A DNA stretch of 64,000 nucleotides, from assembly GCF_900102675.1 (NCBI RefSeq), contig NZ_FMYX01000001.1:434001-498000 (forward strand), in the 5' to 3' direction. The number at the start of each line of letters is the position of its first letter. Positions within the stretch are counted from its first letter, which is position 1. This DNA is from Pseudomonas guariconensis (lineage in GTDB: Bacteria > Pseudomonadota > Gammaproteobacteria > Pseudomonadales > Pseudomonadaceae). Of this stretch, positions 24,494 to 43,197 are shown piece after piece. The notes below the pieces were generated by a model. It ran no database searches. It saw nothing but the letters and a program-made list of their open reading frames with translations, and was not told where the DNA came from. The position numbers were made by a program, and so were the translations under genes.

Positions 24494-25267
24494 ATGGGCC
24501 GCCTGTGCGCCCTGGCCCTGATGCTGGTGAGCCTGCACGGTGTGGCCGGCGAGCGCATCCGCTACTGCGACTACCCGGTGTACCCGCCGATTTCCTGGAG
24601 CGATGGCCGCCAGGTCCGAGGCCTGGCACCCACCGTGGTGCGCGAGTTGCTCGGGCGCTTGGGCTACGAGGTCGAGATCGTTGTGCTGGGCAACTGGAAG
24701 CGCTGCCTGATGGACGCCGCCGCAGGGCGGGTCGATGTGGTGCTGGCCTACAACAGCGACCAGCGCGACCAGGGCATGCGCTTTTCCACGGTGCCGGTGC
24801 TGCGCGAGGAGGTGGCGGTGTTCGTCAATCAGCGCCGGCCGGTGCGCTTCGAGCACCTGGACGACCTGGCCGGCTACCGGGGCGGTCTGCTCTACGGCGA
24901 AAGCTATGGGCCTGAGTTCGACCGTTTCGTGGCGCGGCACCAGAACATCGAATGGGTGTCCTCCAGCCAGCAGAACTTCGGCAAGCTGATCCGTGGTCGC
25001 ATCGACTTCGTGATCCAGGAGCGGCGTACCGGCCAGCTGTTCGTCGAGCACCTGCCTGGGGCCAAGGATATCCACGCCTTACCCACCGCACTGAGCGTGG
25101 ATTATCTGCGCGTTGCGGTTTCGCGACATTCCCCTTTGAGCCGGCGCATGGATGCCATCGACCAGCAGTTGCGCAAGATGACCGAGGCTGGCGAAATCCA
25201 GCGTTGGCTGGAGCAGAGCGAAGTGACTTACCGCGACATGATCAACCTGCCGGTGGACGCCCGATGA
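24494..25267 (+). CDS. periplasmic family-3 solute-binding protein, probable sensory partner of AruS
   Basis: 257 aa. A short Sec signal peptide ([19 protein letters not shown]) precedes a family-3 binding fold ([29 protein letters not shown], ending TYRDMINLP). It begins 5 bases after aruR and its stop overlaps the aruS start by 4 bases, so the three are co-translated. No permease or ATPase gene accompanies it. A binding protein fixed between a response regulator and its kinase suggests that it presents ligand (arginine or a related amino acid) to the kinase rather than serving an ABC importer. This is inference from gene order. Confidence 0.8.
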
Positions 25268-27645: not shown

Positions 27646-27726
27646 ATGAAATGCCGTAAAGCTCAAGACCTCCTGAATTGTCTTCCCGCCCAGTGCGCCT
27701 GCCAGGTCGAGGTGCGCCATGTCTGA
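27646..27726 (+). CDS. short Cys-rich upstream ORF (leader peptide) overlapping the permease start
   Basis: 26 codons, starting MKCRKAQDLL and ending VEVRHV. The ATG at 27646 has a good ribosome site, TTGGAGATAAG. The stop TGA (27724-27726) overlaps the permease start in ATGTCTGA, so the two frames share 8 bases. The peptide has four cysteines, at positions 3, 12, 17 and 19, and two clustered basic residues near the start. I do not recognise it. Placement and overlap suggest translational coupling or a regulatory leader. It could also be chance, since such a short frame has no statistical weight alone. Confidence 0.5.
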   Translation: MKCRKAQDLLNCLPAQCACQVEVRHV

Positions 27727-29131
27727 ATCCACTGACCGCAAAGGCATCCAACTGACCCGTGCGCTCAAGAGCCGGCACATCTTCATGCTGTCGCTGGGCG
27801 GGGTGATCGGCACCGGCCTGTTCATGGGCTCGGGGGTCACGATCAACCAGGGCGGCCCGATGGGGGCGATCCTGGCTTATTTGGTCGCGGGCCTTCTGAT
27901 GTACCTGGTCATGGTCTGCCTGGGCGAGCTGTCGGTGCAGATGCCCGTGTCCGGTTCGTTCCAGGCCCATGCCACCAAGTTCATCGGCCCGGCCACGGGG
28001 TTCATGATCGGCTGGGTGTACTGGATGAGCTGGGCCACCACCGTGGGCCTTGAGTTCACCGCCGCCGGCATGCTGATGACCCGTTGGTTCCCCGAGGTGC
28101 CGATCTGGTATTGGTCGGCGCTGTTCGTCGCCGTGCTGTTCGGACTCAATGCCCTGGCCACCCGCGCCTTCGGTGAGGCCGAGTATTGGTTCTCGGGCAT
28201 CAAGGTCGCGACCATCCTGGGCTTTATCGTGATCGGCCTGTTGGTGATCTTCGGCGGCATTCCGCTGAACAATGGGACGCCGGCCCCGATGCTCGACAAC
28301 CTCATTGGCGATTCGCTGTTCCCCCATGGGCTGTCGGCGGTGTTCGCGGTCATGATGACCGTGGTGTACGCCTTCCAGGGTTGCGAGATCATGGGCGTGG
28401 CCGCGGGCGAGACCGAGCATCCGGAAAAGAGCATCCCTCGCGCTGTGCGCAACGTGGTGTTCCGCGTCCTGATCTTCTATGTGCTGGCCATCGCCGTGCT
28501 CTCGGCCATCGTGCCGCACGAGCAGGCCGGCCTGATGGAAAGCCCGTTCGTGCAAGTGTTCGACATGGTCGGTATCCCTTACGCGGCGGACCTGATGAAC
28601 TTTGTGATCCTCACCGCGATCCTGTCGGTGGGTAACTCGGGGCTGTATGCCTCCACGCGTATCCTCTGGGCCATGTCCAAGACCGGCATGGCGCCCAAGA
28701 GCCTGTCGCCGCTGAGCAAGCGCGGCGTGCCGCTGCGGGCGCTGAGCATCACCTTGTGCTTCGCTTTGATCTCGCTGATGACCAGTTTCGTCGCCGCCGA
28801 CACCCTGTTCATGGTGTTGATGGCGGTGAGCGGAATGTCCGGCACCGTGACCTGGATCGTCATTGCCCTGGCTCAGTACCGCTTCCGCAAAGCCTTCCTG
28901 CGTGATGGCGGCAAGCTTGAGGAGCTCAAGTACCGCGCGCCGCTGTACCCCCTGGTGCCGCTGCTGTGCATCACCTTGTGCAGTTCGTTGTTCGTGTTCC
29001 TGGCCTTGGACGAGACCCAGCGTCCGTCGCTGTACTGGGGCTTTGGCTTCATTGCCGTGTGCTACGCGGCGTACTTCCTGATCAACCGTCGTCGGCAGGG
29101 GGCCTTCGAGCCGAGCGCGCCTGGCGTATGA
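27719..29131 (+). CDS. APC-family amino acid permease (arginine/lysine type)
   Basis: 470 aa with 12 membrane segments. It shows the APC signatures SRHIFMLSLGGVIGTGLF at the first segment, GELSVQMPVSGSF, and FQGCEIMGVAAGETEHPEKSIPRA in the middle. This is the LysP/AroP-like amino acid:H+ symporter group. The matching gene in the P. aeruginosa aru locus is annotated as a lysine/arginine permease, so a basic amino acid is the likely substrate. Start ATG at 27719 has GAGGTG 7 bases upstream, inside the overlapping short ORF. A REP pair follows the stop. Confidence 0.92.
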   Translation: MSESTDRKGIQLTRALKSRHIFMLSLGGVIGTGLFMGSGVTINQGGPMGAILAYLVAGLLMYLVMVCLGELSVQMPVSGSFQAHATKFIGPATGFMIGWVYWMSWATTVGLEFTAAGMLMTRWFPEVPIWYWSALFVAVLFGLNALATRAFGEAEYWFSGIKVATILGFIVIGLLVIFGGIPLNNGTPAPMLDNLIGDSLFPHGLSAVFAVMMTVVYAFQGCEIMGVAAGETEHPEKSIPRAVRNVVFRVLIFYVLAIAVLSAIVPHEQAGLMESPFVQVFDMVGIPYAADLMNFVILTAILSVGNSGLYASTRILWAMSKTGMAPKSLSPLSKRGVPLRALSITLCFALISLMTSFVAADTLFMVLMAVSGMSGTVTWIVIALAQYRFRKAFLRDGGKLEELKYRAPLYPLVPLLCITLCSSLFVFLALDETQRPSLYWGFGFIAVCYAAYFLINRRRQGAFEPSAPGV

Positions 29132-29441: not shown

Positions 29442-30233
29442 ATGACTAGCCCGTCCTCACTGCTGAGCAAGGTCGAAGCCGGCGTTGCCTGGATCACCCT
29501 GAACCGCCCCGAGCAACGCAACGCGCTGGACATCCCCAGCCTCAAGCAACTGCACGCACTGCTGGAAGCCTTCAACACCGATCCAGCCGTGCGGGTGGTG
29601 GTGCTGACCGGCACTGGGCGCAGCTTCTGCGCAGGCGCGGACCTGGCCGAGTGGGCCGAGGCCGAAGCCCGCGGTGCCCTGGAAAGCTACGGCTGGACCG
29701 AGACCGCCCACGCCTTGATGCAGCGTCTGCACAGCCTGGACAAACCCACCATCGCCGCCATCAACGGCACCGCCGTCGGCGCCGGGATGGACCTGAGCCT
29801 GTGCTGCGACCTGCGTATCGCCGCCGCCTCGGCGCGCTTCAAGGCCGGTTACACCAGCATGGCCTACAGCCCGGACGCCGGTGCCAGCTGGCACTTGCCA
29901 CGGCTGATCGGTACCGAGCAGGCCAAGCGTTTGTTGTTCTTGGACGAGCTGTGGGGCGCCGAGCGCGCCCTGGCTGCCGGACTGGTGAGCGAGGTGTGCG
30001 CCGATGACCAGTTGCCGACCGTCACTGCCGAACTGGCCGCTCGCCTGGCCAAGGGGCCGACTTTCGCCTACGCCCAGACCAAGCGCCTGATCCGTGACGG
30101 AGCCCAGCGCACCTTGAGCGAGCAGCTGGAAGCCGAGCTTGCCGCAGGCCTGCTGTGCGGGCGCAGCCAGGACGGCGCCGAGGCGCTACGGGCTTCGGTC
30201 GAACGACGCGCGCCAGAATTCGTTGGTAAATAA
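29442..30233 (+). CDS. crotonase-family protein of the aru locus (PaaG-like, likely isomerase)
   Basis: 263 aa. Crotonase fold with FCAGADLAEW and INGTAVGAGMDLSLCCD. The residues that match the two hydratase glutamates are Asp117 and Tyr137, so ordinary enoyl-CoA hydration is unlikely. Asp145 in AYSPDAGASWHLPR lines up with the catalytic Asp of PaaG-type isomerases. It heads a tight run with the acyl-CoA dehydrogenase (33 bases on) and acyl-CoA synthetase. The start at 29442 (MTSPSSLLSKVEAG) follows GAGG; the longer in-frame reading runs through the promoter region. The substrate is probably a guanidino-acyl-CoA, by context only. Confidence 0.83.
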   Translation: MTSPSSLLSKVEAGVAWITLNRPEQRNALDIPSLKQLHALLEAFNTDPAVRVVVLTGTGRSFCAGADLAEWAEAEARGALESYGWTETAHALMQRLHSLDKPTIAAINGTAVGAGMDLSLCCDLRIAAASARFKAGYTSMAYSPDAGASWHLPRLIGTEQAKRLLFLDELWGAERALAAGLVSEVCADDQLPTVTAELAARLAKGPTFAYAQTKRLIRDGAQRTLSEQLEAELAAGLLCGRSQDGAEALRASVERRAPEFVGK

Positions 30234-30266
30234 CCCCTTACACGACCTTCTTCAGGACGATTCCAG

Positions 30267-31427
30267 ATGAATTTCCAACTGACCCAAGAACAAGAAATGT
30301 TGGTGGAAGCGGTACGCAGCTTCCTGACCAAAGAGCTGCTGCCCTATGAGGAAGAGGTGGACCGCGCCGATGCGGTGTCGCCGGAGCTGGCGGCGCAGAT
30401 CCGCGGCAAAGCGATCGCGGCTGGGTTCTATGCCTTCAACATGCCCGAGGAAGTCGGCGGCGGTGGCCTGGATTATCTGTCCCAGGCGCTGATCGAGCGT
30501 GAGTTGTCCAAGGTTTCCTGGGCCTTGCACGTGTTCGTGGCGCGCCCCTCAAAGATCCTCATGGCCTGTAAGGACGAGCAGATCAACGACTACCTGCTGC
30601 CGTGCGTGCAAGGCGAGAAGATCGATTGCTTCGCCCTCACCGAGCCGGGCGCCGGCTCCGACGCCAATGCCATCAAGACCCGCGCTGTACGCGACGGTGA
30701 CGATTTCGTCATCAATGGCAGCAAGCACTTCATCAGTCACGCCGGCCACGCCGACTTCGCCATCGTCTTCGCGGTCACCGACACCTACGAACACAACGGC
30801 CGCAAGCGCAATGCCGTGACGGCCTTCTTGGTCGACCGCGGTACGCCAGGCATGACCATCCGCCGTGGCCCCAAGTGCGTGAGCAACCGTGGCTACCACA
30901 CCTACGAGCTGTTCTTCGACGACTGCCGCGTGCCGGCCAGCAAGGTGCTGGGCGAGGTGGACAAAGGCTGGGAGGTGGCCAACGCCTGGCTCACCGCAGG
31001 TCGGGTGATGGTGGCCGCCAACTGCGTGGGCCAGGCCCAGCGCGCCCTTGATCTTTCCCTGCAGTGGTCCGCCGACCGCAAGCAGTTCGGCCAGGCCATC
31101 GGCAGCTACCAGGGCGTGTCGTTCAAGCTCGCCGACATGGCCACCCAGATCCGCGCCGCGGAACTGCTGACCCTGCACACCGCCTGGAAGATGGACCAAG
31201 GCAGCATGACCGACGGCGAGGCCGGCATGGCCAAGCTGTTCGCCAGTGAAGTGCTGGGCAAGGTGGCTGACGAGGCGGTGCAGATCTTCGGTGGCATGGG
31301 CCTGATGGACGAGGGACCGGTCGAGCGCATCTGGCGTAACGCGCGGATCGAGCGGATCTGGGAGGGCACATCCGAAATCCAGCGACACATCATTTCCCGC
31401 GAACTGCTGCGTCCGCTGCTGCGCTGA
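30267..31427 (+). CDS. acyl-CoA dehydrogenase of the aru locus
   Basis: 386 aa, FAD-dependent acyl-CoA dehydrogenase with the usual three-part fold. Visible motifs are CFALTEPGAGSDA for flavin and acyl binding, KHFISHAG, and the catalytic Glu in RIERIWEGTSEIQRHII near the C-terminus. It would introduce a 2,3-double bond in an acyl-CoA and pass electrons to electron-transfer flavoprotein. Neighbours point to 4-guanidinobutyryl-CoA or a related short acyl-CoA. The ATG at 30267 follows AGGACGAT. An equivalent gene lies in the P. aeruginosa aru cluster. Confidence 0.92.
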   Translation: MNFQLTQEQEMLVEAVRSFLTKELLPYEEEVDRADAVSPELAAQIRGKAIAAGFYAFNMPEEVGGGGLDYLSQALIERELSKVSWALHVFVARPSKILMACKDEQINDYLLPCVQGEKIDCFALTEPGAGSDANAIKTRAVRDGDDFVINGSKHFISHAGHADFAIVFAVTDTYEHNGRKRNAVTAFLVDRGTPGMTIRRGPKCVSNRGYHTYELFFDDCRVPASKVLGEVDKGWEVANAWLTAGRVMVAANCVGQAQRALDLSLQWSADRKQFGQAIGSYQGVSFKLADMATQIRAAELLTLHTAWKMDQGSMTDGEAGMAKLFASEVLGKVADEAVQIFGGMGLMDEGPVERIWRNARIERIWEGTSEIQRHIISRELLRPLLR

Positions 31428-31445
31428 TCGGCCTGGAGATTGCCC

Positions 31446-33563
31446 ATGTCGCACTCGATTCGTGACAACCTCAAGCGCCTGCTGGCGCCCCGGCACCTGG
31501 CCTTCGTCGGCGGGCGCAGCATGGCGCGGGCGCTCAAGCGCTGCGCCGAAGGCGGCTTCGCCGGCCAGATGTGGCTGGTGAACCCACAGCATGAAAGCCT
31601 CGATGGCGTACCGTGCGTGCCCAGTGTGGCCGAGTTGCCCTGTGGGCCGGACGCGGTGTTCATCGCCACCAACCGTGACCTGACCTTGCAATGCGTCAAG
31701 GACCTGGCCGCGATCGGCGCCGGTGGCGCCATCTGCTACGCCTCAGGCTTTGCCGAGAGCGGCGAGCAAGGGCGCGTGCTGCAACAGCGCCTGCTCGAGG
31801 CGGCCGGCTCTATGGCCTTGCTCGGCCCTAACTGCTATGGCCTGCTCGATTACCTGCATGGCGCAGCCCTGTGGCCGGTTGCCCACGGCGGCAAACAGGT
31901 GGAGAAGGGCGTGGCGATCCTCACCCAGAGCGGCAATTTCGCCTACAACCTGTCCATGAGCGACCGCTCGCTGCCGGTGGCCTACATGGCCTCGGTGGGC
32001 AACCAGGCGCAGTTGGGCGTGGCCGAGCTGATGGACGTGCTACTCGACGACCCTCGCGTTACCGCCATCGGCCTGCACCTGGAAGGCCTGAAGAACGTGC
32101 CGGGCTTTGCCCGTGCCGCACACAAGGCGTTGGAGCGGGGCATCCCGATCATCGCTTTGAAGACCGGCGTGTCGCAGATCGGCGCCGAGCTCGCCCTGAG
32201 CCACACCAGCTCGCTGTCGGGCTCCGATGCCCTGTACGACAGCCTGTTCCAGCGCTTGGGCGTGATCCGCGTGAGCGGCCCGGTCAGTTTTGCCGAAACC
32301 CTCAAGGCGGCCGCCTGCGGCCACTTGCCCCAGGATGGCCGATTGATCGCCCTGGCGTGCTCCGGAGGCGATGCGGGCCTGATCGCCGACTACGCCGAGC
32401 GCAACCACCTGGCCTTGCCCAAGCTTGAGCAAATGCAGGTGGATGAGTTGGCCCAGGTGTTGCCGGCCTACGCCAACCTGGTCAACCCACTGGACTTCAC
32501 CACGGCGATCTGGGGCGATGGCGCGGCGCTCGAGCGCATGCTCGACAGCGCCCTGCAAACCGATGCCGATGCGGCCATGCTGGTGCTGGATTACCCGGCG
32601 GAGTTCACCGGCGAGCGCAAGGAGTGCGACCTGCTGCTGGGGCTGTACTGCGATGCCTTGCAGCGCCACGGCAAAATCGGCTTCGTCACCTCGGCCTTCC
32701 CTGAGCTGCTGCCGGCCAGCGCCCGCGAACGCCTGCATGCGCGAGGCATCGCCGCATTGCAGGGCGTGGAAGATGGCCTGGCGGCCTGGGGGCGGATCGT
32801 TGCCTACCAGCGCAACCGCCAGCGCTTGCTGGAGCTGGGCGAGTCGGCCTTGGTGCCACTGTGCCCGCAGGCCCTGGGTGGCCAGGCGCAACTGCTCGAT
32901 GAATGGCAATCCAAGCAGGCGCTGCGTGCCTTTGGCCTGCCGGTACCTGGCGGTGTGCTGAGCACGCCCGAGCAGGCACTCAAGGATGCCGCACGCGTCG
33001 GCTACCCGCTGGTGCTCAAGGCGGTCAGCGCACAATTGCCGCACAAGACCGAAGCCGGCGCGGTGGCCCTGAACCTGCGCGATGCCGACGCCCTGCAAGC
33101 GGCGCTCGAGCAGATGCACGGGCGCATCGCGGCCTACGCCCCTGGCGTGCCGTTCGACCAGGTGTTGCTCGAGCCCATGGCCCAGGCGCCGTTGGCCGAG
33201 CTGATCGTCGGCATCAAGCGCGAGAACGATTTTGCCCTGGCCTTGGTGATCGGTGCCGGTGGGGTGCTGGTGGAATTGCTCAAGGACAGCGTCAATCTGC
33301 TGCTGCCGACCACCGACGGCGCCATCCGCAACGCCGTGCTGGGCCTGCGCAGCGCCGGTCTGTTGCAAGGTTTCCGTGGCCGCCCGGCCGCCGATCTCGA
33401 CGCCTTGGTGGCGGCGATCCGCGCGGTGGCCGACTACGCCTGCGAAAACGCCGGCCAGTTGCTGGAGCTCGACGTAAACCCATTGATGGTCGGTGCCCAA
33501 GGCACCACCGCGGTCGACGCGCTGATCCGCCTCGGCCAGGCGCAAGGAGAACAACATGCATGA
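31446..33563 (+). CDS. acyl-CoA synthetase, NDP-forming (acetate--CoA ligase family)
   Basis: 705 aa fusion of CoA-binding, succinyl-CoA-ligase-like and ATP-grasp domains. The phospho-relay His253 is seen in ELALSHTSSLSGSDA. The ATP-grasp part begins at about residue 480 (WQSKQALRAFGLPVPGG, PLVLKAVSAQLPHKTEAGAV). It would activate a carboxylic acid to its CoA ester with ADP release. In this operon 4-guanidinobutyrate is the logical substrate. Start ATG 31446 has TGGAG 7 bases upstream; a TTG two codons earlier is possible. Its stop overlaps the aruI start by 8 bases. Confidence 0.9.
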   Translation: MSHSIRDNLKRLLAPRHLAFVGGRSMARALKRCAEGGFAGQMWLVNPQHESLDGVPCVPSVAELPCGPDAVFIATNRDLTLQCVKDLAAIGAGGAICYASGFAESGEQGRVLQQRLLEAAGSMALLGPNCYGLLDYLHGAALWPVAHGGKQVEKGVAILTQSGNFAYNLSMSDRSLPVAYMASVGNQAQLGVAELMDVLLDDPRVTAIGLHLEGLKNVPGFARAAHKALERGIPIIALKTGVSQIGAELALSHTSSLSGSDALYDSLFQRLGVIRVSGPVSFAETLKAAACGHLPQDGRLIALACSGGDAGLIADYAERNHLALPKLEQMQVDELAQVLPAYANLVNPLDFTTAIWGDGAALERMLDSALQTDADAAMLVLDYPAEFTGERKECDLLLGLYCDALQRHGKIGFVTSAFPELLPASARERLHARGIAALQGVEDGLAAWGRIVAYQRNRQRLLELGESALVPLCPQALGGQAQLLDEWQSKQALRAFGLPVPGGVLSTPEQALKDAARVGYPLVLKAVSAQLPHKTEAGAVALNLRDADALQAALEQMHGRIAAYAPGVPFDQVLLEPMAQAPLAELIVGIKRENDFALALVIGAGGVLVELLKDSVNLLLPTTDGAIRNAVLGLRSAGLLQGFRGRPAADLDALVAAIRAVADYACENAGQLLELDVNPLMVGAQGTTAVDALIRLGQAQGEQHA

Positions 33564-35163
33564 ACGTCCTTTGACCGGCGGCCAAGCCCTGGTACGGCTG
33601 TTGAGCAACTATGGGGTCGACACGGTGTTCGGTATCCCCGGGGTACACACCCTGGAGCTGTACCGGGGGCTGCCGGGCAGCGGCATCCGCCATGTGCTGA
33701 CCCGCCATGAACAAGGCGCGGGCTTCATGGCCGACGGCTATGCGCGGGTCAGTGGCAAGCCGGGAGTGTGCTTCGTCATCACCGGCCCTGGTGTGACCAA
33801 CGCTGCCACCGCCATCGGCCAGGCCTACGCCGATTCCATCCCGATGTTGGTGATTTCCAGCGTCAACCACACCGCAAGCCTGGGCAAAGGCTGGGGCTGT
33901 CTGCACGAGACCCAGGACCAGCGCGCCATGACCGCGCCGATCACCGCATTCTCCGCCGTGGCGCTGAGCACCGAGGACCTGCCGGAGCTGATCGCCCGTG
34001 CCTGGGCGGTGTTCGACAGCGAGCGTCCGCGTCCGGTGCACATCTCGGTGCCGCTGGATGTGCTGGCCGCGCCGGTCACCCGCGACTGGAGCAATGACGT
34101 GGTGCGCCGCCCAGGGCGCGGCCTGCCGGATCGCGACAGTCTGCAGCAGGCTGCCGTCAAGCTGGCCAACGCCAAGCGGCCGATGATCATCGCGGGCGGT
34201 GGCGCTTTGCACGCGGCGGCTGAGCTCGCGCAACTGAGTACGCGCCTGGCCGCACCGGTGTTCACCAGTGTCGCCGGCAAGGGCCTGCTAGCCCCGCAGG
34301 CGCCGCTCAATGCCGGTGCCAGCCTGTGCGTCGAACCGGGCTGGCAAATGATCGGCGAGGCCGATGTGGTGCTGGCGGTAGGCACCGAGATGGCCGATAC
34401 CGATTTCTGGCGTGAACGTCTGCCATTGGCCGGCGAACTGCTGCGGGTGGACATCGACCCACGCAAGTTCAACGACTTCTACCCCTGCGCGATTGCCCTG
34501 CACGGCGATGCCCGGCAGACCCTGGCCAGCCTGCTGGAGCATCTGCCGCAGGCCACCCGCGATGCCGGTGCCGCCATCGCGGCCGTCAACAACCTGCGCC
34601 AGGCGATCCGGGCAGGGCATGCGCCGCTGCAGGCGATTCACCAGGCGATTCTCGACCGCATCGCCGCCGCACTGCCGGAAAACGCCTTCATCAGCACCGA
34701 CATGACCCAACTCGCCTACACCGGCAACTACGCCTTCACCAGCCGGGCACCGCGCAGCTGGCTGCACCCGACCGGCTACGGCACCCTGGGCTACGGCCTG
34801 CCGGCCGGCATCGGCGGTATGTTCGCCACCGAAGACCGCCCGGGCCTGGTGCTGGTGGGTGATGGCGGCTTCCTCTATACCGCCCAGGAATTGGCCACCG
34901 CCGTTGAAGAGCTCGACCGCCCGCTGGTGGTGCTGCTGTGGAACAACGACGCCTTGGGGCAGATTCGTGACGACATGCTGGGCCTGGACATCGAACCGAT
35001 TGGCGTATTGCCACGCAACCCGGACTTCATCGGCCTGGCCCGCGCCTTTGGGTGCGCCGTGCGCCAGCCGCGCAGTCTGGACGAGTTGCAATCGGATCTG
35101 GTCGACGGATTTGCCACGCCAGGCGTGACCTTCATCGAACTCAAGCACGCCTGTGCCCGTTGA
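33556..35163 (+). CDS. aruI: 5-guanidino-2-oxopentanoate (2-ketoarginine) decarboxylase
   Basis: 535 aa, a thiamine diphosphate enzyme of the acetolactate-synthase-like group. Glu of RHEQGAGFMADGYAR activates the cofactor, and GDGGFLYTAQELATAVEEL...NN forms the diphosphate/Mg site. It decarboxylates 2-ketoarginine to 4-guanidinobutyraldehyde in the arginine transaminase pathway. Assignment over acetolactate synthase rests on the absence of an adjacent small regulatory subunit and on the flanking transaminase, racemase and aldehyde dehydrogenase, as in the known aruIH cluster. It begins with an 8-base overlap with the acyl-CoA synthetase gene. Confidence 0.88.
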   Translation: MHERPLTGGQALVRLLSNYGVDTVFGIPGVHTLELYRGLPGSGIRHVLTRHEQGAGFMADGYARVSGKPGVCFVITGPGVTNAATAIGQAYADSIPMLVISSVNHTASLGKGWGCLHETQDQRAMTAPITAFSAVALSTEDLPELIARAWAVFDSERPRPVHISVPLDVLAAPVTRDWSNDVVRRPGRGLPDRDSLQQAAVKLANAKRPMIIAGGGALHAAAELAQLSTRLAAPVFTSVAGKGLLAPQAPLNAGASLCVEPGWQMIGEADVVLAVGTEMADTDFWRERLPLAGELLRVDIDPRKFNDFYPCAIALHGDARQTLASLLEHLPQATRDAGAAIAAVNNLRQAIRAGHAPLQAIHQAILDRIAAALPENAFISTDMTQLAYTGNYAFTSRAPRSWLHPTGYGTLGYGLPAGIGGMFATEDRPGLVLVGDGGFLYTAQELATAVEELDRPLVVLLWNNDALGQIRDDMLGLDIEPIGVLPRNPDFIGLARAFGCAVRQPRSLDELQSDLVDGFATPGVTFIELKHACAR

Positions 35164-35196
35164 CCGCACCTTCAGGACAACAAATAGAGAACAAGC

Positions 35197-36426
35197 ATGA
35201 TGCCATTCCGTCGTACCCTTCTTGCCGCCTCCCTGGCCCTGCTGGCCGCCCAGGCCCCGCTGTACGCCGCACCGCCGTTGTCGATGGACAACGGCATCAA
35301 CGCCCTGACCATCCAGAACAGTAACGCCTGGGTCGAGATCAGCAAGAGCGCCATCGAACACAACATCCGGACCCTGCAGGCAGAACTGAACGGTAAATCC
35401 AAGCTGTGCGCGGTGCTCAAGGCTGACGCCTATGGCCACGGTATTGGTCTGGTAATGCCCTCGATCATCGCCTTGGATGTGCCGTGCGTGGCGGTGGCGA
35501 GCAACGAGGAAGCCCGTGTGGTCCGTGCCAGCGGCTTCAAAGGGCAACTGGTGCGGGTGCGCCTGGCCAGCGTGAGCGAGGTGGAAGACGCCTTGCAGTA
35601 CAACATGGACGAGTTGGTCGGCAGCGCCGAGTTCGCCCGCCAGGTGGCGGCGATCGCCCAGCGCCACGGCAAGACCCTGCGTATCCACCTGGCCCTGAAC
35701 TCCAGCGGGATGAGCCGCAACGGCGTGGAAATGGCCAGTTGGTCGGGCCGTGGTGAAGCACTGGAGATCGCCGAGCAGCCGAACCTGGAACTGGTCGCGC
35801 TGATGACCCACTTCGCCGTCGAAGACAAGGACGACGTGCGCAAGGGCCTGGCCGCCTTCAAGGAGCAGAGCGACTGGCTGATCAAGCATGCCAAACTCGA
35901 CCGCCGCAAGCTGACCCTGCACGCGGCCAACTCCTTCGCCACCCTGGAGGTGCCCGAAGCGCGCCTGGACATGGTACGCACCGGCGGCGCGCTGTTCGGC
36001 GACACCGTGCCCAGCCACACCGAGTACCGCCGCGCCATGCAGTTCAAGTCCCGCGTGGCGGCTGTGCACAGTTACCCGGCCGGCAACACCGTCGGCTATG
36101 ACCGCACCTTCACCCTGAGCCGCGATTCGCGCCTGGCCAACATCACCGTCGGCTACTCCGATGGCTATCGCAGGGTGTTCACCAACAAAGGCCATGTGCT
36201 GATCAACGGTCACCGTGTGCCGGTGGTAGGCAAGGTGTCGATGAACACCCTGATGGTGGATGTCACCGATTTCCCTGACGTCAAGAATGGCAACGAGGTG
36301 GTGCTGTTCGGCAAGCAGGCGGGCGGTGAAATCACCCAGAGCGAAATGGAAGAAATCAATGACGCGCTGCTGGCCGACCTCTACACGGTCTGGGGTAGTG
36401 CCAACCCGAAGATCCTCGTCGACTGA
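35197..36426 (+). CDS. periplasmic broad-specificity amino acid racemase
   Basis: 409 aa, PLP-dependent fold-type III racemase. Unlike house-keeping alanine racemases it has a Sec signal peptide (RRTLLAASLALLAAQAPLYAA, cut near residue 25), so it works in the periplasm. The PLP lysine is in CAVLKADAYGHG and the second catalytic tyrosine in VGYDRTFTL; GYSDGYRRVF completes the family pattern. Exported racemases of this type act on Lys, Arg and other residues, and one is known in the matching P. putida locus. Placed between aruI and aruH, it would interconvert D- and L-arginine/lysine before uptake. Confidence 0.9.
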   Translation: MMPFRRTLLAASLALLAAQAPLYAAPPLSMDNGINALTIQNSNAWVEISKSAIEHNIRTLQAELNGKSKLCAVLKADAYGHGIGLVMPSIIALDVPCVAVASNEEARVVRASGFKGQLVRVRLASVSEVEDALQYNMDELVGSAEFARQVAAIAQRHGKTLRIHLALNSSGMSRNGVEMASWSGRGEALEIAEQPNLELVALMTHFAVEDKDDVRKGLAAFKEQSDWLIKHAKLDRRKLTLHAANSFATLEVPEARLDMVRTGGALFGDTVPSHTEYRRAMQFKSRVAAVHSYPAGNTVGYDRTFTLSRDSRLANITVGYSDGYRRVFTNKGHVLINGHRVPVVGKVSMNTLMVDVTDFPDVKNGNEVVLFGKQAGGEITQSEMEEINDALLADLYTVWGSANPKILVD

Positions 36427-36446
36427 CGCCTTCATAGGAGACGCTC

Positions 36447-37637
36447 ATGCGCTTTGCCAAGCTGACCCAACGCATCGCCGGCGACGGCGCCGCCGCCTGG
36501 GACATCCACTACCGCGCCCTTGCGATGCAGGCCGAGGGCAAGGACGTCCTGTTGCTGTCGGTGGGAGATCCGGATTTCGACACGCCGGCGCCCATCGTCG
36601 AGGCGGCCATCGATAGCCTGCGCGATGGCCACACCCATTATTCGGATGTACGCGGCAAGCTGGCCCTGCGCCAGGCCATTGCCCGTCGCCACCAGCAACG
36701 CAGCGGCCAGGCGGTGAGCGCCGACCAGGTCACGGTGCTGGCCGGTGCGCAGTGCGCGTTGTTCTGCGTGGCCCAGTGCGTGCTCGATCCGGGCGACGAG
36801 GTGATCGTCGCCGAACCCATGTACGTGACCTACGAGGCCGTGTTCGGCGCCTGTGGCGCGACGGTGGTGCCGGTGCCGGTCAAGCCTGAGAACGGGTTCC
36901 GCGTGTGCCCCGAGGATGTGGCGGCACGTATCACCCCGCGTACCCGTGCCTTGGCACTGAACAGCCCGCACAACCCTTCGGGCGCGAGCCTGCCGCGCGC
37001 CACCTGGGAGGCGCTGGCCGAGCTGTGCATCGCCCATGACCTGTGGCTGATCTCCGATGAGGTGTACAGCGAGCTTTTGTACGAGGGCGAGCATGTCAGC
37101 CCCGGCAGCCTGCCGGGCATGGCCGAACGCACGGCGACCCTCAACAGCCTGTCCAAGTCGCACGCGATGACCGGCTGGCGGGTGGGCTGGGTGGTGGGTT
37201 CGACCGCGCTGGCGGACCATCTGGAAAATCTCGCCCTGTGCATGCTCTACGGCTCCCCCGACTTCATCCAGGACGCTGCGGTGGCGGCACTGGAGCAACA
37301 GCTGCCGGAGCTTGAGGCAATGCGCCTGGCGTACCGCCAGCGCCGTGACCTGGTCTGCGAGCGTCTGGCTGGTTGCCCGGGTATCAAGGCGCTCAAGCCT
37401 GATGGGGGCATGTTCGTGATGGTCGATATCCGCGAAACCGGCCTCAGTGCCCAGGCCTTCGCCGACCGCCTGCTGGATAGTCAGGGTGTATCGGTACTGG
37501 CGGGCGAGGCCTTCGGCCCGAGCGCTGCCGGGCATATCCGCCTTGGCCTGGTGGTCGGTGCACAGGCGCTGGAAGAGGCGTGCCGACGCATCGCCCGGTG
37601 CGCCGCCGAACTGATGAAGGAGCAGACTCATGCGTGA
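36447..37637 (+). CDS. aruH: arginine:pyruvate transaminase (class I/II aminotransferase)
   Basis: 396 aa, PLP fold-type I aminotransferase. The PLP lysine is in NSLSKSHAMTGWR, with NSPHNPSGASLP and the aspartate in LISDEVYSELL. AruH transfers the amino group of L-arginine to pyruvate, giving 2-ketoarginine and alanine. The call over a generic aspartate aminotransferase relies on the neighbouring aruI and the aru gene order. The ATG at 36447 has AGGAGAC upstream; the 3' end overlaps the aldehyde dehydrogenase gene by 8 bases, so they are probably translated together. Confidence 0.87.
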   Translation: MRFAKLTQRIAGDGAAAWDIHYRALAMQAEGKDVLLLSVGDPDFDTPAPIVEAAIDSLRDGHTHYSDVRGKLALRQAIARRHQQRSGQAVSADQVTVLAGAQCALFCVAQCVLDPGDEVIVAEPMYVTYEAVFGACGATVVPVPVKPENGFRVCPEDVAARITPRTRALALNSPHNPSGASLPRATWEALAELCIAHDLWLISDEVYSELLYEGEHVSPGSLPGMAERTATLNSLSKSHAMTGWRVGWVVGSTALADHLENLALCMLYGSPDFIQDAAVAALEQQLPELEAMRLAYRQRRDLVCERLAGCPGIKALKPDGGMFVMVDIRETGLSAQAFADRLLDSQGVSVLAGEAFGPSAAGHIRLGLVVGAQALEEACRRIARCAAELMKEQTHA

Positions 37638-39045
37638 GTACGCGCGGCTTTACATCGACGGCGCCTGGCAGGTGCCGAGCGGGCAGAGGATGGCCGAGGT
37701 CATCGACCCGGCCAGCGAAGTTGCCATCGGCCGTGTGCCGCTGGGTGACGAGCAGGATGTGGAGCGGGCGGTGAATGCGGCGCGAAGGGCGTTCGCTGAG
37801 TGGTCGCATACGCCATCGAGCCGGCGTGCAGGCTATATCCGTGCCTTGGCCGAGCAATTGCGTGCGCGGGCCGGAGAAATGGCCGATGTGATCACCAGCG
37901 AACTGGGCATGCCGGTGCAGTGGTGCCAGATGGTGCAGGTCGACGGGCCAATCGAAGGGCTGGAGCAGTATGTCGAACTGGCTGGCTTGATGGATGAGGT
38001 GCGTGAAGTCGGTAACTCGCTGGTGTACCGCGAGGCGGTGGGCGTGTGTGCCTTCATCAACCCGTGGAACTACCCGCTGCACCAGATGATCGGCAAGCTG
38101 GCACCGGCCTTGGCTGCCGGTTGCACGGTGGTGGTCAAGCCGAGCCAGGAGACGCCGCTGCACGCCTTCTTGCTGGCTGAGATGATCGACGCCATTGGGC
38201 TGCCGGCCGGGGTGTTCAACCTGGTCAGCGGGCCGGGGTCGAAGGTGGGCGAGGCGCTGGCCCGGCATCCGCAGGTAGACATGGTGTCATTCACCGGCTC
38301 TACCGGCGCTGGGGTGCGGGTGTCCCAGGCGGCGGCGCCGACGGTCAAACGGGTGTGCCTCGAACTGGGCGGCAAGTCGCCGCTGCTGATCACCGCCGAC
38401 GCCGACCTGGAAGCGGCGGTGCGCCATGGTGTGCAGGACGTGATGATCAACTCCGGACAGACGTGCACGGCGTTGACCCGCATGCTGCTGCCGGTCGAGC
38501 GCTACGCCGAGGCCTTGGAGATCGCCTTGGCCGAGACGCGTGCGCTGGTCATGGGCGATCCGCGTGATCCGCAGAGTTTTCTGGGGCCGATGTGTTCGGC
38601 AGGGCAGCGGCGCACGGTGCTCGACTACATCCGCCTGGGGCAGGAAGAGGGCGCGCGATTGTTGTGCGGTGGTGATTCGGCGCCTGGGTTCGAGCGTGGA
38701 TTCTACGTTGCGCCGACGCTGTTCGCCGATGTCGACAACCGCATGCGCATCGCCCAGGAAGAGAGCTTCGGGCCGGTACTGTGCCTGATCCCGTATGCCG
38801 ATGAGCAGCAGGCTATTTCGATGGCCAACGACTCGCCGTTTGGCTTGTCCAGCGCAGTGTGGGCAGGCGATCGCGAGCGTGGGCTGGCCTTGGCCCGACA
38901 GATGCGTGCCGGGCAGTGCTTCGTCAACGGTGGCGGGTTCAACTACCGGGCACCGTTTGGCGGCTACAAACAGTCCGGAAACGGGCGCGAGTGGGGCGAG
39001 GAGGGGTTGGGTGAGTTCATCGAAGTGAAGGCGGTTCAGCTCTGA
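37630..39045 (+). CDS. NAD(P)-dependent aldehyde dehydrogenase, likely for 4-guanidinobutyraldehyde
   Basis: 471 aa, full-length aldehyde dehydrogenase. The catalytic Cys is in INSGQTCTALTR, the general base Glu in CLELGGKSP, and the cofactor motif is FTGSTGAG. It begins inside the end of aruH (ATGCGTGA overlap). In P. aeruginosa the matching step uses KauB, coded elsewhere, so an ALDH inside the aru cluster is a difference. It would oxidise 4-guanidinobutyraldehyde, or an aldehyde formed further along the CoA arm. The substrate is inferred from context only. Confidence 0.88.
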   Translation: MREYARLYIDGAWQVPSGQRMAEVIDPASEVAIGRVPLGDEQDVERAVNAARRAFAEWSHTPSSRRAGYIRALAEQLRARAGEMADVITSELGMPVQWCQMVQVDGPIEGLEQYVELAGLMDEVREVGNSLVYREAVGVCAFINPWNYPLHQMIGKLAPALAAGCTVVVKPSQETPLHAFLLAEMIDAIGLPAGVFNLVSGPGSKVGEALARHPQVDMVSFTGSTGAGVRVSQAAAPTVKRVCLELGGKSPLLITADADLEAAVRHGVQDVMINSGQTCTALTRMLLPVERYAEALEIALAETRALVMGDPRDPQSFLGPMCSAGQRRTVLDYIRLGQEEGARLLCGGDSAPGFERGFYVAPTLFADVDNRMRIAQEESFGPVLCLIPYADEQQAISMANDSPFGLSSAVWAGDRERGLALARQMRAGQCFVNGGGFNYRAPFGGYKQSGNGREWGEEGLGEFIEVKAVQL

Positions 39046-39169: not shown

Positions 39170-39610
39170 TCAACCCGCCGCCACATCCTCCACGGGCCTG
39201 TCGAACGCCACGAACAATTGATCGGCCGTGATCGCCCCCAGATCCAGGCGCATGTTCGCCTCGAGCATGGCGAACAGACGGGTGAACACCTCGTACACCT
39301 TGCAGTGATCCTCCATCCCGGAAAACGGGTTGTCGATCTTCTCGGCGATCAATGAGCTTTCCTGCACCGCGTCGTACACCTCGCGCAGGGTGATTTCGCT
39401 GGCCGGGCGGGCCAGGGTCAGGCCGCCATGAGCGCCACGCCAGGACTTGAGAATGTCGGCCTTGACCAGTTGCGAGGCCAGGCTGCGCACCCGTGCCGGA
39501 TGGACCTTGACCCACTTGGCGATGGTCTCCGTACGCAGTTTCTGCGGTGCGTTGGCGGCCACGAACGAGAGGATGTACGAGGCGGTGATCAGGCGAGTCG
39601 ACTGGCTCAT
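39170..39610 (-). CDS. Rrf2-family transcriptional regulator
   Basis: 146 aa. It has the Rrf2 winged helix (AKWVKVHPARVRSLASQLVKAD, WRGAHGGLTLARP). Only one cysteine (DHCKVYE, about residue 98) is present, so it cannot hold an IscR- or NsrR-type cluster with three Cys ligands in the usual way; it is closer to CymR/YwnA-type Rrf2 proteins. ATG 39610 is preferred over the TTG two codons upstream. It is divergent from an ABC importer operon, with a 15-base palindrome in between that may be its operator. Confidence 0.87.
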   Translation of the reverse strand: MSQSTRLITASYILSFVAANAPQKLRTETIAKWVKVHPARVRSLASQLVKADILKSWRGAHGGLTLARPASEITLREVYDAVQESSLIAEKIDNPFSGMEDHCKVYEVFTRLFAMLEANMRLDLGAITADQLFVAFDRPVEDVAAG

Positions 39611-39664
39611 CGGCAAAGGTCCCTGGGTAAAAACCGAAGTCTACACCCCTGTGAAAATCTCACT

Positions 39665-39710
39665 TGGCAGGGGCGTGGCATTGAGTCTAATGTATTTGTC
39701 ACGATGACAA
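39665..39710 (+). promoter_or_regulatory. operator palindrome and possible sigma-54-like element before the ABC importer
   Basis: TTGTCA-CGA-TGACAA at 39696-39710 is a perfect 6-bp dyad with a 3-base centre, in the 162-base gap between the Rrf2 gene and the binding-protein gene. Upstream, TGGCAGGGGCGTGGCA at 39665-39680 has the GG-N10-GC spacing of a sigma-54 promoter but departs from consensus at two positions. The palindrome is the firmer of the two. Confidence 0.42.
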
Positions 39711-39772
39711 TTACAAATATTTGGTCGTCGGGCGAACAAGACCTTTCCTGGCGGTTCAACAGAGGCGATGCC

Positions 39773-41374
39773 ATGAGCGATAACAAGAACAAGATCACTC
39801 AAGCGATGCCCGATAGCGGCCTGCCGCGTCGGGATTTCCTCAAGTACAGCGCGGCGGCGGCCACCTTCGCCGGCGCCTTCTCGCTGGGCCTGCCGATGTC
39901 GGGCTGGGCCGAGGAGGGCACCCCTAAGGCCGGCGGCGTCCTGCGCATGGGCCTGGCGGGTGGCAGCACCACTGATTCCGGCGACCCAGGCTCGTGGAGC
40001 GATACGTTTACGTTTGTCGGGTTCTCGGCCGTATACAACACCCTGAGCGAAATCAGCGTCGACGGCACGGCGATTCCAGAGTTGGCCGAGCGCTGGGAGT
40101 CCAGCCCCGACGCCAAGGTCTGGACCTTCACCCTGCGCCAGGGCGTCACCTTCCACGATGGCAAGACCCTGGACGCCAACGATGTGGTCGCCTCGATCCA
40201 GCACCACCTGGGCGAAAAATCCACCTCGGCGGCCAAGACCGTGCTCGGCGATGTCGCCCAGGTCCGCGCCCAGGGCAACGACACCGTGGTGTTCGAGCTG
40301 CATTCGGGCAATGCCGACTTCGCCTATGTAGTCGCCGATTACCATCTGGTGATCATGCCGGCCAAGGACGGTGTGGCTGACTGGCGCTCCGGCAACGGCA
40401 CCGGCGGCTACCGCCTCAAGCGCTTCGAGCCAGGCGTGCGCATGGACCTGGAGCGCAACCCGAACTACTGGAAGCCCGGTCGTGCGCATTTTGCCAGCGC
40501 CGAACTGCTGGCCATCGCCGATGGCGCTGCGCGGGTCAATGCCCTGGTCACCGGCCAGGTGGACGTGATCAACAAGGTCGATCTCAAGACCGTGGCGCTG
40601 CTCAAGCGCAACCCGCAGTTGGTGATCGAAGAGACCAAGGGCGCCCAGCACTACACCTTCCCCATGCTCTGCGACAGCACCCAGTTCAAGAACAACGACG
40701 TGCGTTTGGCGCTCAAGTACGCCATCGACCGCCAGGCCTTGTTGACTTCAGTGCTGCATGGCTACGGCCAGATCGGCAACGACCATCCGATCCAGCCGGG
40801 CAGCCGCTTCATCAACCCGGCGCTCGAACAGCGCGCCTACGACCCGGACAAAGCCCGTTTCCATCTGCGCCAGGCTGGGCTGGACGCGCTCAAGGTGCGT
40901 TTGCAGGCTTCGGACGCCGCCTATACCGGCGCGGTGGACGCTTCGGTGCTGTTCAAGGAGCAGGCGCGCAAGTCGGGTATCGACATCGATGTGGTGCGCG
41001 AACCGGCCGATGGCTTCTTCACCAACGTATGGATGAAGCAGCCGTTCACCACTTCGTTCTGGTACAGCAGCCTGACCGCCGACCGCATGTTCAGCATCGG
41101 CTATGCAAAAGGCGCAGCCTGGAACGAGACGCACTGGGACAACGCCCGCTTCAACCAGCTGCTCAATGCCGCCCGTGGCGAGATGAACGCGCCGCTGCGG
41201 CAGGAGATGTACAACGAAATGCAGGCCCTGTGCCGCGACGACGGCGGCGCCATCGTGCCGCTGTTCGCAAGCTCGGTGGCGGCGCGTTCGCGTCGGGTCA
41301 CCCACGGCGGGGTCACCGCGCCCTATGGCGAACTCGATGGCCTGCGGCTGATCGAGCGCTGGTGGCAGGCCTGA
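39773..41374 (+). CDS. ABC transporter substrate-binding protein, family 5 (peptide/opine/nickel type)
   Basis: 533 aa. The N-terminus carries a twin-arginine signal (LPRRDFLKYSAAAATFAG...GWA, cut near residue 45), so the protein is exported folded. The mature part is a DppA/OppA-like family-5 binding fold (WTFTLRQGVTFHDGKTLDANDVV, RLALKYAIDRQALLTSVLHGYG). It is the first gene of a complete importer with two permeases and a fused double ATPase. The ligand cannot be told from sequence; short peptides, opines or glutathione-like compounds are possible. The ATG at 39773 follows AGAGGCG. Confidence 0.9.
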   Translation: MSDNKNKITQAMPDSGLPRRDFLKYSAAAATFAGAFSLGLPMSGWAEEGTPKAGGVLRMGLAGGSTTDSGDPGSWSDTFTFVGFSAVYNTLSEISVDGTAIPELAERWESSPDAKVWTFTLRQGVTFHDGKTLDANDVVASIQHHLGEKSTSAAKTVLGDVAQVRAQGNDTVVFELHSGNADFAYVVADYHLVIMPAKDGVADWRSGNGTGGYRLKRFEPGVRMDLERNPNYWKPGRAHFASAELLAIADGAARVNALVTGQVDVINKVDLKTVALLKRNPQLVIEETKGAQHYTFPMLCDSTQFKNNDVRLALKYAIDRQALLTSVLHGYGQIGNDHPIQPGSRFINPALEQRAYDPDKARFHLRQAGLDALKVRLQASDAAYTGAVDASVLFKEQARKSGIDIDVVREPADGFFTNVWMKQPFTTSFWYSSLTADRMFSIGYAKGAAWNETHWDNARFNQLLNAARGEMNAPLRQEMYNEMQALCRDDGGAIVPLFASSVAARSRRVTHGGVTAPYGELDGLRLIERWWQA

Positions 41375-43195: not shown

Positions 43196-43197
43196 AC

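What the first reader, a model, noticed from the sequence alone, without database searches (positions are those of the whole stretch)
29442..39045. Acyl-CoA arm grafted onto the arginine transaminase pathway: possible guanidine-releasing route
Seen: a crotonase, an acyl-CoA dehydrogenase, an NDP-forming acyl-CoA synthetase, AruI, an exported racemase, AruH and an aldehyde dehydrogenase in one tight strand, several with 8-base overlaps. Known: AruH and AruI give 4-guanidinobutyraldehyde, which is oxidised to 4-guanidinobutyrate and normally cut by a guanidinobutyrase (ureohydrolase). No ureohydrolase, thiolase or 3-hydroxyacyl-CoA dehydrogenase is present here. Inference: 4-guanidinobutyrate is activated to its CoA ester, dehydrogenated to the 2-enoyl-CoA, then shifted by the isomerase-like crotonase to the 3-enoyl form. 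That product is an N-vinyl guanidine (enamine) that would hydrolyse to guanidine and 4-oxobutyryl-CoA, leading to succinyl-CoA. This would be a new way to remove the guanidino group.
Basis: partly seen in the sequence, partly recalled or inferred. Interest (0 to 1): 0.8.

Follow-up and report, generated by a model that had tools for sequence, protein, structure and literature searches.

The report
Guanidine-releasing CoA arm of arginine catabolism
Many Pseudomonas genomes carry three coenzyme-A enzyme genes that travel with the gene for the second step of the arginine transaminase pathway; they likely act on 4-guanidinobutyrate and are predicted to split off free guanidine, which would be an unrecognised way to break down arginine alongside the known urea-forming enzyme whose gene this genome also carries.

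Summary
Crotonase, acyl-CoA dehydrogenase (ACD) and NDP-forming acyl-CoA synthetase (ACS) genes abut aruI, racemase, aruH and aldehyde dehydrogenase on one strand. The link is old: crotonase occurs in 41 of 149 genus genomes, all 41 among the 42 with AruI. The hint that the usual hydrolase is missing fails for the genome: a guanidinobutyrase ortholog lies elsewhere, as in all 42 AruI genomes.

Three results point to 4-guanidinobutyrate as substrate and an isomerase as last step. (1) In two species without AruH/AruI orthologs the arm follows a polyamine-binding-type protein and a class-III aminotransferase, a possible agmatine entry to the same aldehyde. (2) The nearest ACD/ACS relatives found outside the genus sit with carnitine/butyrobetaine-type genes, whose substrate is also a 4-cationic butyrate. 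(3) The crotonases there keep both hydratase glutamates; the arm's crotonase has Asp/Tyr instead (41 of 41; 81 of 81).

Guanidine release itself is inferred. Guanidine riboswitches do not discriminate. Ten literature searches found no role for the arm in arginine breakdown; the 2007 papers on this locus are not held.

The parts
29442..30233 (+). Crotonase, isomerase-type site; residues D117/Y137/D145 counted from the ATG at 29442
   Evidence: 421 bits to PDB 5ylo, whose residue 1 aligns with the ATG at 29442; triad 41/41 and 81/81
30267..31427 (+). Acyl-CoA dehydrogenase; predicted 4-guanidinobutyryl-CoA dehydrogenase; catalytic-type Glu366 in WEGTSEIQ
   Evidence: Glu366 and Trp365 in 83/83 arm proteins
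31440..33563 (+). NDP-forming acyl-CoA synthetase (fused CoA-binding, ligase and ATP-grasp domains); predicted 4-guanidinobutyrate-CoA ligase; His255, Trp358
   Evidence: His255 and Trp358 in 84/84 arm proteins
33556..35163 (+). AruI, ThDP-dependent 2-ketoarginine (5-guanidino-2-oxopentanoate) decarboxylase
   Evidence: PRK07524 783 bits, cut-off 500
35197..36426 (+). Alanine racemase-family protein with signal-peptide-like N-terminus; present in a minority of arm loci (3 of 43, 11 of 80)
36447..37637 (+). AruH-like class I aminotransferase (best NCBIfam model GntC, below cut-off)
37630..39045 (+). Aldehyde dehydrogenase; predicted 4-guanidinobutyraldehyde (possibly also 4-oxobutyryl-CoA) dehydrogenase
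   Evidence: substrate inferred from position
27719..29131 (+). Amino-acid permease (S-methylmethionine/GABA permease-like)
   Evidence: in 23 of 43 and 57 of 80 arm loci
23053..23697 (+). BetI-type TetR regulator
   Evidence: Pfam TetR_C_6; 72% identical to the TetR beside the arm in L090
23772..24488 (+). Response regulator of the upstream two-component system
24494..25267 (+). Family-3 solute-binding protein
24952..27519 (+). Hybrid sensor histidine kinase (CHASE5); counterpart of the PA4982/PA4983 pair by position. The 5' end overlaps the binding-protein gene, so the true start is probably later
39428..41374 (+). Family-5 (Opp/Dpp/Nik-type) solute-binding protein (true start probably downstream)
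   Evidence: in 23 of 43 arm loci, directly after the ACS without AruI between in L082, L084, L087
41402..42364 (+). ABC permease
42368..43195 (+). ABC permease
43189..44844 (+). ABC ATPase, two ABC domains
44841..45545 (+). Flavodoxin_2 / quinone-reductase-like protein; frequent partner of the arm, role unknown
   Evidence: found in 39 of 43 loci

Best explanation
The three-gene CoA arm of the Pseudomonas arginine transaminase cluster likely activates 4-guanidinobutyrate to its CoA ester and oxidises it to 4-guanidinocrotonyl-CoA, and its crotonase, which lacks both hydratase glutamates, is predicted to move the double bond to C3-C4 so that the resulting N-vinyl guanidine would hydrolyse to guanidine and 4-oxobutyryl-CoA. 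Shown by the sequence: gene content and order, near-obligate linkage to AruI, a catalytic-type Glu in the ACD, a phospho-acceptor-type His in the ACS, and the D/Y/D crotonase site. Inferred from linkage and relatives: 4-guanidinobutyrate as substrate (about 0.65). Inferred from residues: isomerase rather than hydratase (about 0.7 given the substrate). Inferred from chemistry alone: spontaneous or enzyme-aided hydrolysis to guanidine, and oxidation of 4-oxobutyryl-CoA to succinyl-CoA or succinate. The arm would run beside, not instead of, the guanidinobutyrase route; dumping guanidine during growth on nitrogen-rich arginine is one possible reason to keep both.
For: Co-inheritance: crotonase in 41 and AruI in 42 of 149 genus genomes; all 41 crotonase genomes have AruI and only G055 has AruI alone (set check and Fisher p 5e-36, ignoring phylogeny). 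In 398 phylum genomes the same 4 hold both. Nine loci keep crotonase-ACD-ACS-AruI with no AruH or ALDH nearby (L016, L129-L136), so AruI is the tightest partner; AruH relatives of 50-52% identity lie elsewhere in those nine genomes. Second entry route: L219 and L220 lie in genomes with no AruH match (E<=1e-60) and only a 48-49% AruI paralog; there the arm follows, on the same strand, a PotF-like binding protein (369 bits in L219, cut-off 636), a class-III aminotransferase (PRK07036, 786 bits in L219, cut-off 618) and a LuxR-type gene. Relatives of that aminotransferase occur in 20 of 124 arm/aru stretches, 1 to 11 kb from the crotonase and at several different positions. Relatives of the arm: the ACD (57-59%) and ACS (38-44%) of L013 and L014 sit beside a crotonase whose best model is crotonobetainyl-CoA hydratase (306 and 338 bits, cut-off 500), and in L013 also beside carnitine 3-dehydrogenase (751 bits, cut-off 592) and BKACE. 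Crotonase columns: D/Y/D in 41 of 41 arm proteins, E/E/D in those two; 81 of 81 in the larger set.
Against: No enzyme assay, mutant or metabolite exists here. GbuA is present in 42 of 42 AruI genomes, against 91 of 107 others (p 0.006), so the cell should not need the arm to use 4-guanidinobutyrate. Guanidine-I riboswitches are not enriched with the arm (21 of 41 against 61 of 108) and none was found in the window's genome; guanidine-II is in 41 of 41 arm genomes but also in 98 of 108 others (p 0.06). Guanidine-handling genes beside the arm were not searched for. The flavodoxin-like gene (39 of 43) has no role in the proposed chemistry. The substrate of the class-III aminotransferase is unknown and could be putrescine or another amine; that gene is not in the window. 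The Asp145 that recalls PaaG is also in the two hydratase-type crotonases, so only the loss of the two Glu discriminates. The crotonase scores below the PaaG cut-off (192 of 345) and two general crotonase/enoyl-CoA hydratase models score slightly higher (196, 195); among PDB hits after 5ylo, entries called hydratase (162-164 bits) stand beside one called 1,2-epoxyphenylacetyl-CoA isomerase (156 bits). The crotonobetainyl-CoA hydratase label of the L013/L014 crotonases is below cut-off.
Confidence: 0.42

Rival explanations
1. Same substrate, but the crotonase hydrates 4-guanidinocrotonyl-CoA to 3-hydroxy-4-guanidinobutyryl-CoA, as in the butyrobetaine-to-carnitine route, and beta-oxidation enzymes elsewhere then cut it to guanidinoacetyl-CoA and acetyl-CoA.
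For: The ACD and ACS relatives in L013 and L014 sit beside a hydratase-type crotonase; general enoyl-CoA hydratase models score as high as PaaG on the window crotonase.
Against: Both hydratase glutamates are replaced in 41 of 41 and 81 of 81 proteins; no 3-hydroxyacyl-CoA dehydrogenase or thiolase among the cluster genes scanned in the window.
Confidence: 0.15
2. The arm acts on a different acid linked to AruI or the class-III aminotransferase, for example 4-aminobutyrate or another amine-derived acid, and releases ammonia or another group.
For: The PotF-like protein and the class-III aminotransferase fit putrescine as well as agmatine; the Opp-type transporter's ligand is unknown.
Against: AruI (5-guanidino-2-oxopentanoate decarboxylase model) is the tightest partner; the simplest product common to both linked routes is 4-guanidinobutyraldehyde.
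Confidence: 0.2
3. 4-Guanidinocrotonyl-CoA cyclises inside the crotonase (a guanidine nitrogen adds to C3) to a 2-aminoimidazoline acetyl-CoA that is processed further, perhaps with the flavodoxin-like enzyme.
For: A five-membered ring is geometrically easy (chemical inference); the flavodoxin-like gene is a frequent partner (39 of 43) that the guanidine-release model leaves unused.
Against: No gene for further use of such a ring was recognised among the scanned genes; no precedent came up in the calls.
Confidence: 0.1
4. The arm makes a fatty-acid signal (cis-2-decenoic acid) sensed by the neighbouring two-component system, as proposed for PA4978-PA4983.
For: Proposed from microarray and interaction data in PMC4412052 (passages read).
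Against: Linkage to AruI (41 of 42) and an ACD closest to short-chain and butyrobetaine-type enzymes; the same paper notes that Amari et al. reported another crotonase gene, PA0745, in contrast to it (passage cut).
Confidence: 0.03

Closest known systems
P. aeruginosa arginine transaminase locus with PA4978-PA4980 and the PA4982/PA4983 two-component system (from PMC4412052 passages; aruH = PA4976, aruI = PA4977 recalled)
   Same: Same kinds of genes; the three sister-genus loci L137-L139 carry permease, crotonase, ACD, ACS, AruI, AruH, ALDH and the flavodoxin-like gene
   Different: The window adds the racemase and the Opp-type ABC genes; my ten literature searches found no role for the CoA arm in arginine breakdown
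Gamma-butyrobetaine CoA arm of carnitine catabolism, as read from L013 (ACS, ACD, CaiD-like crotonase, carnitine 3-dehydrogenase, BKACE), with a similar trio in L014
   Same: Homologous ACD (57-59%) and ACS (38-44%); substrate would also be a butyrate with a cation on C4
   Different: Third enzyme is a different crotonase (30-32% identical) without the E/E pair; no carnitine dehydrogenase or BKACE among the window cluster genes
PaaG-type enoyl-CoA isomerase (PDB 4fzw_C; 3hrx and 6sl9, which PDB lists as hydratases and I recall as Thermus PaaG)
   Same: Has the Asp that is residue 136 in the 3hrx numbering; lacks both hydratase Glu
   Different: Scores 192 bits against the PaaG cut-off of 345; has Asp at the Glu144 position
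DddX, an NDP-forming synthetase that makes DMSP-CoA and cleaves it (PMC8163506, passages; PDB 7cm9)
   Same: Best solved relative of the ACS (220 bits); also takes a short acid with a cation; His292 of DddX aligns with His255
   Different: Distant relative; the Glu432 cleavage base falls at E395, which is Q in 10 of 84 arm proteins, so no lyase activity is claimed
Known guanidine-releasing enzymes: ethylene-forming enzyme, NapI, guanylurea hydrolase, plant homoarginine-6-hydroxylases (abstract and passages of PMC11018352 and PMC11410670)
   Same: In the homoarginine-6-hydroxylase route guanidine leaves spontaneously from the hydroxylated intermediate (abstract), as proposed here for the imine
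   Different: These use an oxygenase or a hydrolase; the arm would use CoA chemistry with no oxygenase

Membership tests
Arginine transaminase pathway | 2-ketoarginine decarboxylase AruI | tested here: met
   PRK07524, 783 bits, cut-off 500
Arginine transaminase pathway | Arginine:pyruvate transaminase AruH | tested here: inconclusive
   Class I aminotransferase beside AruI; no AruH model among the 25 best NCBIfam hits, the best being GntC below its cut-off
Arginine transaminase pathway | Guanidinobutyrase in the genome | tested here: met
   L002, 667 bits to 3nio; 42 of 42 AruI genomes
Gamma-butyrobetaine/carnitine CoA arm | Homologous ACS and ACD | tested here: met
   57-59% (ACD) and 38-44% (ACS) identity to L013 and L014
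Gamma-butyrobetaine/carnitine CoA arm | Crotonobetainyl-CoA hydratase with two catalytic Glu | tested here: not met
   D/Y in 41 of 41; the CaiD model NF002936 is not among the 25 best hits of the window crotonase
Gamma-butyrobetaine/carnitine CoA arm | Carnitine 3-dehydrogenase / BKACE neighbours | tested here: not met
   Absent from the window cluster genes scanned; other arm loci were matched only against a fixed query set without these genes
PaaG isomerase | Hydratase Glu pair absent, Asp136-equivalent present | tested here: met
   the Asp alone does not discriminate, as two hydratase-type crotonases have it too
PaaG isomerase | Curated equivalog score | tested here: not met
   192 bits, cut-off 345
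Guanidine-producing pathway | Free guanidine formed from substrate | not testable with these tools
   needs assay or LC-MS
Guanidine-producing pathway | Linked guanidine-responsive regulation | tested here: not met
   No Rfam match at gathering score in the window; guanidine-I not enriched, guanidine-II near-universal, guanidine-III absent in 149 genomes

The most novel reading that the evidence does not exclude
Pseudomonas breaks part of its arginine and agmatine down through a CoA pathway that ends in free guanidine and succinyl-level carbon. 4-Guanidinobutyrate enters a butyrobetaine-type activation and dehydrogenation arm, and an isomerase-type crotonase then destabilises the C4-N bond, with no oxygenase and no hydrolase of the guanidino group. 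This would be a new class of guanidine source in many Pseudomonas species, and one reason why guanidine riboswitches are so widespread there.
Probability: 0.38. Interest if true: 0.85.

Novelty: new variant of a known kind. Interest (0 to 1): 0.62.

Why it matters
Guanidine riboswitches and degradation enzymes are common, yet few enzymes that make free guanidine are known (abstract of PMC11018352). If the arm releases guanidine, arginine catabolism in many Pseudomonas species becomes a widespread source of it. It would also explain three genes that travel with AruI but for which my ten literature searches found no role in arginine breakdown, and it would be a clear example of a butyrobetaine-type CoA arm retargeted by swapping one crotonase. 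The idea can be tested with gene removals in a P. putida laboratory strain.

Tried and rejected
Missing-guanidinobutyrase idea: rejected; GbuA is in the genome and in all 42 AruI genomes. Guanidine riboswitch linkage: guanidine-I, -II and -III searched in 149 genomes; no useful association. Two guanidine-II loci looked at (L107, L108) lie between genes that look like a urea/guanidine carboxylase operon (my reading of the translations; not domain-scanned). Fatty-acid-signal reading of PA4978-PA4983: considered and given little weight. DddX-like lyase activity of the ACS: considered because an alignment put a Glu at the DddX Glu432 position; dropped because it is Q in 10 of 84 arm proteins. ACD pocket analysis: no coordinates to map onto, so only shared motifs with the L013/L014 ACDs were noted. 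Promoter scan found 0 sites and terminator-like sites below the shuffle mean: uninformative. No structure prediction was run, because a close solved relative (5ylo) exists. Phylogenetic correction of the 41/42 association was not done (no species tree for all 149 genomes). Literature: searches. Three papers on this locus or on agmatine use are not held: Yang and Lu 2007a, a guess at the DOI of Yang and Lu 2007b, and Chou et al. 2008. A statement there about PA4978-PA4981 may have escaped me; I know these papers only from recall and from reference lists.

Limits of the counts: the first looks scored 17, 9, 6 or 3 candidates per genome at most, so divergent relatives may be missed. The 43-locus and 80-locus sets overlap (at least 16 shared contigs by length), and so do stretches (L140 and L153, for example). 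Many stretches end before the flanking genes, so counts for SBP5, ABC and flavodoxin-like genes are lower bounds. One search did not count the LuxR-type gene because my query was taken in a wrong frame. In one search, proteins shorter than 85% or below 65% identity were left out among the 80 named loci, giving 84 ACS and 83 ACD arm proteins of at most 84 each (window, 80 named, 3 sister-genus).

Full report
What is there. AruI is well assigned (PRK07524, 783 bits, cut-off 500). The ACS is a fused NDP-forming enzyme (CoA-binding, succinyl-CoA ligase-like and ATP-grasp domains). The ACD is short-chain-like. The racemase begins with a signal-peptide-like stretch (by eye). Two of six junctions overlap by 8 bases. 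The unit extends further: a BetI-type TetR gene, a response regulator, a family-3 binding protein, a hybrid sensor kinase and a permease upstream; an Opp-type ABC transporter and a flavodoxin-like protein downstream, the last overlapping the ABC gene by 4 bases. No Rfam family reaches its gathering score in the window. Of the 80 named loci returned for the crotonase, 79 are labelled Pseudomonas and one Pantoea; the closest is P. guariconensis (95% in the crotonase), so the window is probably from the P. putida group (inferred).

A wrong premise. The finding notes that no ureohydrolase is present 'here'. The genome has two elsewhere. L002 matches solved guanidinobutyrase at 667 bits and L001 is agmatinase-like. 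A GbuA ortholog occurs in 133 of 149 genus genomes: 42 of 42 with AruI and 91 of 107 without. The arm therefore does not replace guanidinobutyrase.

The arm goes with AruI. In 149 genus genomes the crotonase is found in 41 and AruI in 42; every crotonase genome has AruI, and only G055 has AruI without the arm. The p-value of 5e-36 ignores shared ancestry. In 398 genomes across the phylum the same four genomes, all of one family, have both. In 43 further arm loci the three CoA genes are always together; AruI is in the same stretch in 39 and 12 to 18 kb from the crotonase in the other four; AruH is in 30 stretches and ALDH in 25. Nine loci keep crotonase-ACD-ACS-AruI without AruH or ALDH nearby. 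AruH relatives of 50-52% identity occur elsewhere in those nine genomes; in L090 such a protein is fused to an ABC ATPase. In 80 named loci the trio is together in all and AruI is in the stretch in 73. Of the other seven, two stretches run off the contig (L216 holds a 205-residue AruI fragment at its end; the L186 genome has an 83% AruI on another contig), three are P. gingeri with AruI 18 to 19 kb away (L209 and L214; L211 by its contig's length equal to that of G083), and two lack an AruI ortholog (L219, L220).

Two loci that speak for the substrate. In P. turukhanskensis (L219) and Pseudomonas sp. GV071 (L220) there is no AruH match at E<=1e-60 and only a 48-49% AruI paralog. There the arm directly follows a PotF-like polyamine-binding protein, a class-III aminotransferase (PRK07036, 786 bits in L219) and a LuxR-type gene on the same strand, the aminotransferase about 1 kb before the crotonase. 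A related aminotransferase appears in 20 of 124 arm/aru stretches, 1 to 11 kb away, upstream, downstream or divergent; it is not in the window. Transamination of agmatine gives 4-guanidinobutyraldehyde (pathway knowledge, recalled), the same aldehyde that AruI makes. Two routes that could share this aldehyde and are both tied to the arm point to its acid, 4-guanidinobutyrate, as the arm's substrate. The aminotransferase's substrate is not tested here and could be putrescine.

Relatives and the swapped crotonase. The closest ACD and ACS relatives found outside the genus (L013, L014; 57-59% and 38-44%) sit beside a crotonase whose best model is crotonobetainyl-CoA hydratase (306 and 338 bits, below the cut-off of 500). 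In L013 they also sit with carnitine 3-dehydrogenase (751 bits, cut-off 592) and BKACE, and in L014 with a gene whose best model is a trimethylamine methyltransferase (262 bits, cut-off 525). Gamma-butyrobetaine is butyrate with a cation on C4, as is 4-guanidinobutyrate. In those clusters the crotonase has Glu at both hydratase positions. In the Aru arm the crotonase is a different one (30-32% identical), with Asp and Tyr there: 41 of 41 arm proteins and 81 of 81 in the larger set. The Asp that corresponds to residue 136 of 3hrx is present in both kinds, so it does not tell them apart. The roles of these positions in rat crotonase, PaaG and dienoyl-CoA isomerase are recalled, not looked up. 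The crotonase is below the PaaG model's cut-off, and general enoyl-CoA hydratase models score about the same, so it is said to work like an isomerase but is not filed as PaaG.

Mechanism. ACS: 4-guanidinobutyrate, CoA and NTP to the CoA ester (predicted; His255 in 84 of 84). ACD: to 4-guanidinocrotonyl-CoA (predicted; Glu366 in 83 of 83). Crotonase: shift of the double bond to C3-C4 (predicted). Tautomerisation to the imine and hydrolysis to guanidine and 4-oxobutyryl-CoA (chemical inference; the spontaneous step after homoarginine 6-hydroxylation is a precedent, abstract of PMC11018352). ALDH could oxidise 4-guanidinobutyraldehyde and perhaps 4-oxobutyryl-CoA (inference). The flavodoxin-like protein, present in 39 of 43 stretches, is unexplained.

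Guanidine evidence. The guanidine-I riboswitch occurs in 82 of 149 genomes, 21 of 41 with the arm and 61 of 108 without; none was found in the window's genome. Guanidine-II occurs in 139 of 149, in all 41 with the arm and 98 of 108 without (p 0.06). Guanidine-III occurs in none. This neither supports nor excludes guanidine release.

Literature. The term guanidinobutyryl-CoA is in four papers; by title and abstract three concern Streptomyces products or tools and one an alga-fungus association (listing only). P. putida locus tags found none. PA4976-PA4981 found one paper, which proposes a fatty-acid-signal role (passages). The papers that defined aruHI are not held. Within these searches no role of the arm in arginine breakdown is in print.

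Verdict. Observation confirmed; interpretation partly supported. Substrate assignment about 0.65, isomerase about 0.7 given the substrate, the whole guanidine-releasing route about 0.4.

Noticed in passing
window:44841-45545: A flavodoxin-like (Flavodoxin_2) gene overlaps the ABC ATPase gene by 4 bases and is in the same stretch as the CoA arm in 39 of 43 loci; no role is evident.
   Followed up: partly
window:39428-44844: An Opp/Dpp/Nik-type ABC transporter lies near the arm in 23 of 43 loci and directly after the ACS, without AruI between, in L082, L084 and L087; its ligand is unknown.
   Followed up: partly
window:35197-36426: A racemase with a signal-peptide-like start sits between aruI and aruH only in a minority of loci (3 of 43, 11 of 80).
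   Followed up: partly
L090:11776-13869: An AruH-like transaminase is fused to a HisP-type ABC ATPase and followed by a family-3 binding protein and, by eye, permease genes: an uptake-plus-transamination fusion. Nine other genomes have AruH relatives in 669-residue open frames, not domain-scanned in full.
   Followed up: partly
L081 (G055): The only genome of 149 with AruI but no arm; an Na+/H+-antiporter-family gene stands before aruI, and no guanidine-II riboswitch was found in this genome. L094 has the same antiporter gene with the arm.
   Followed up: partly
L107, L108: Guanidine-II riboswitches lie between genes that look like a guanidine/urea carboxylase operon in these genomes (by eye).
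   Followed up: no
window:22102-22848: A second crotonase gene on the - strand, near a LysR-type regulator gene and a zinc-binding dehydrogenase gene.
   Followed up: no
L161: A record labelled Pantoea sp. Ap-967 carries the Pseudomonas-type cluster at 86% crotonase identity; the label is probably wrong.
   Followed up: no
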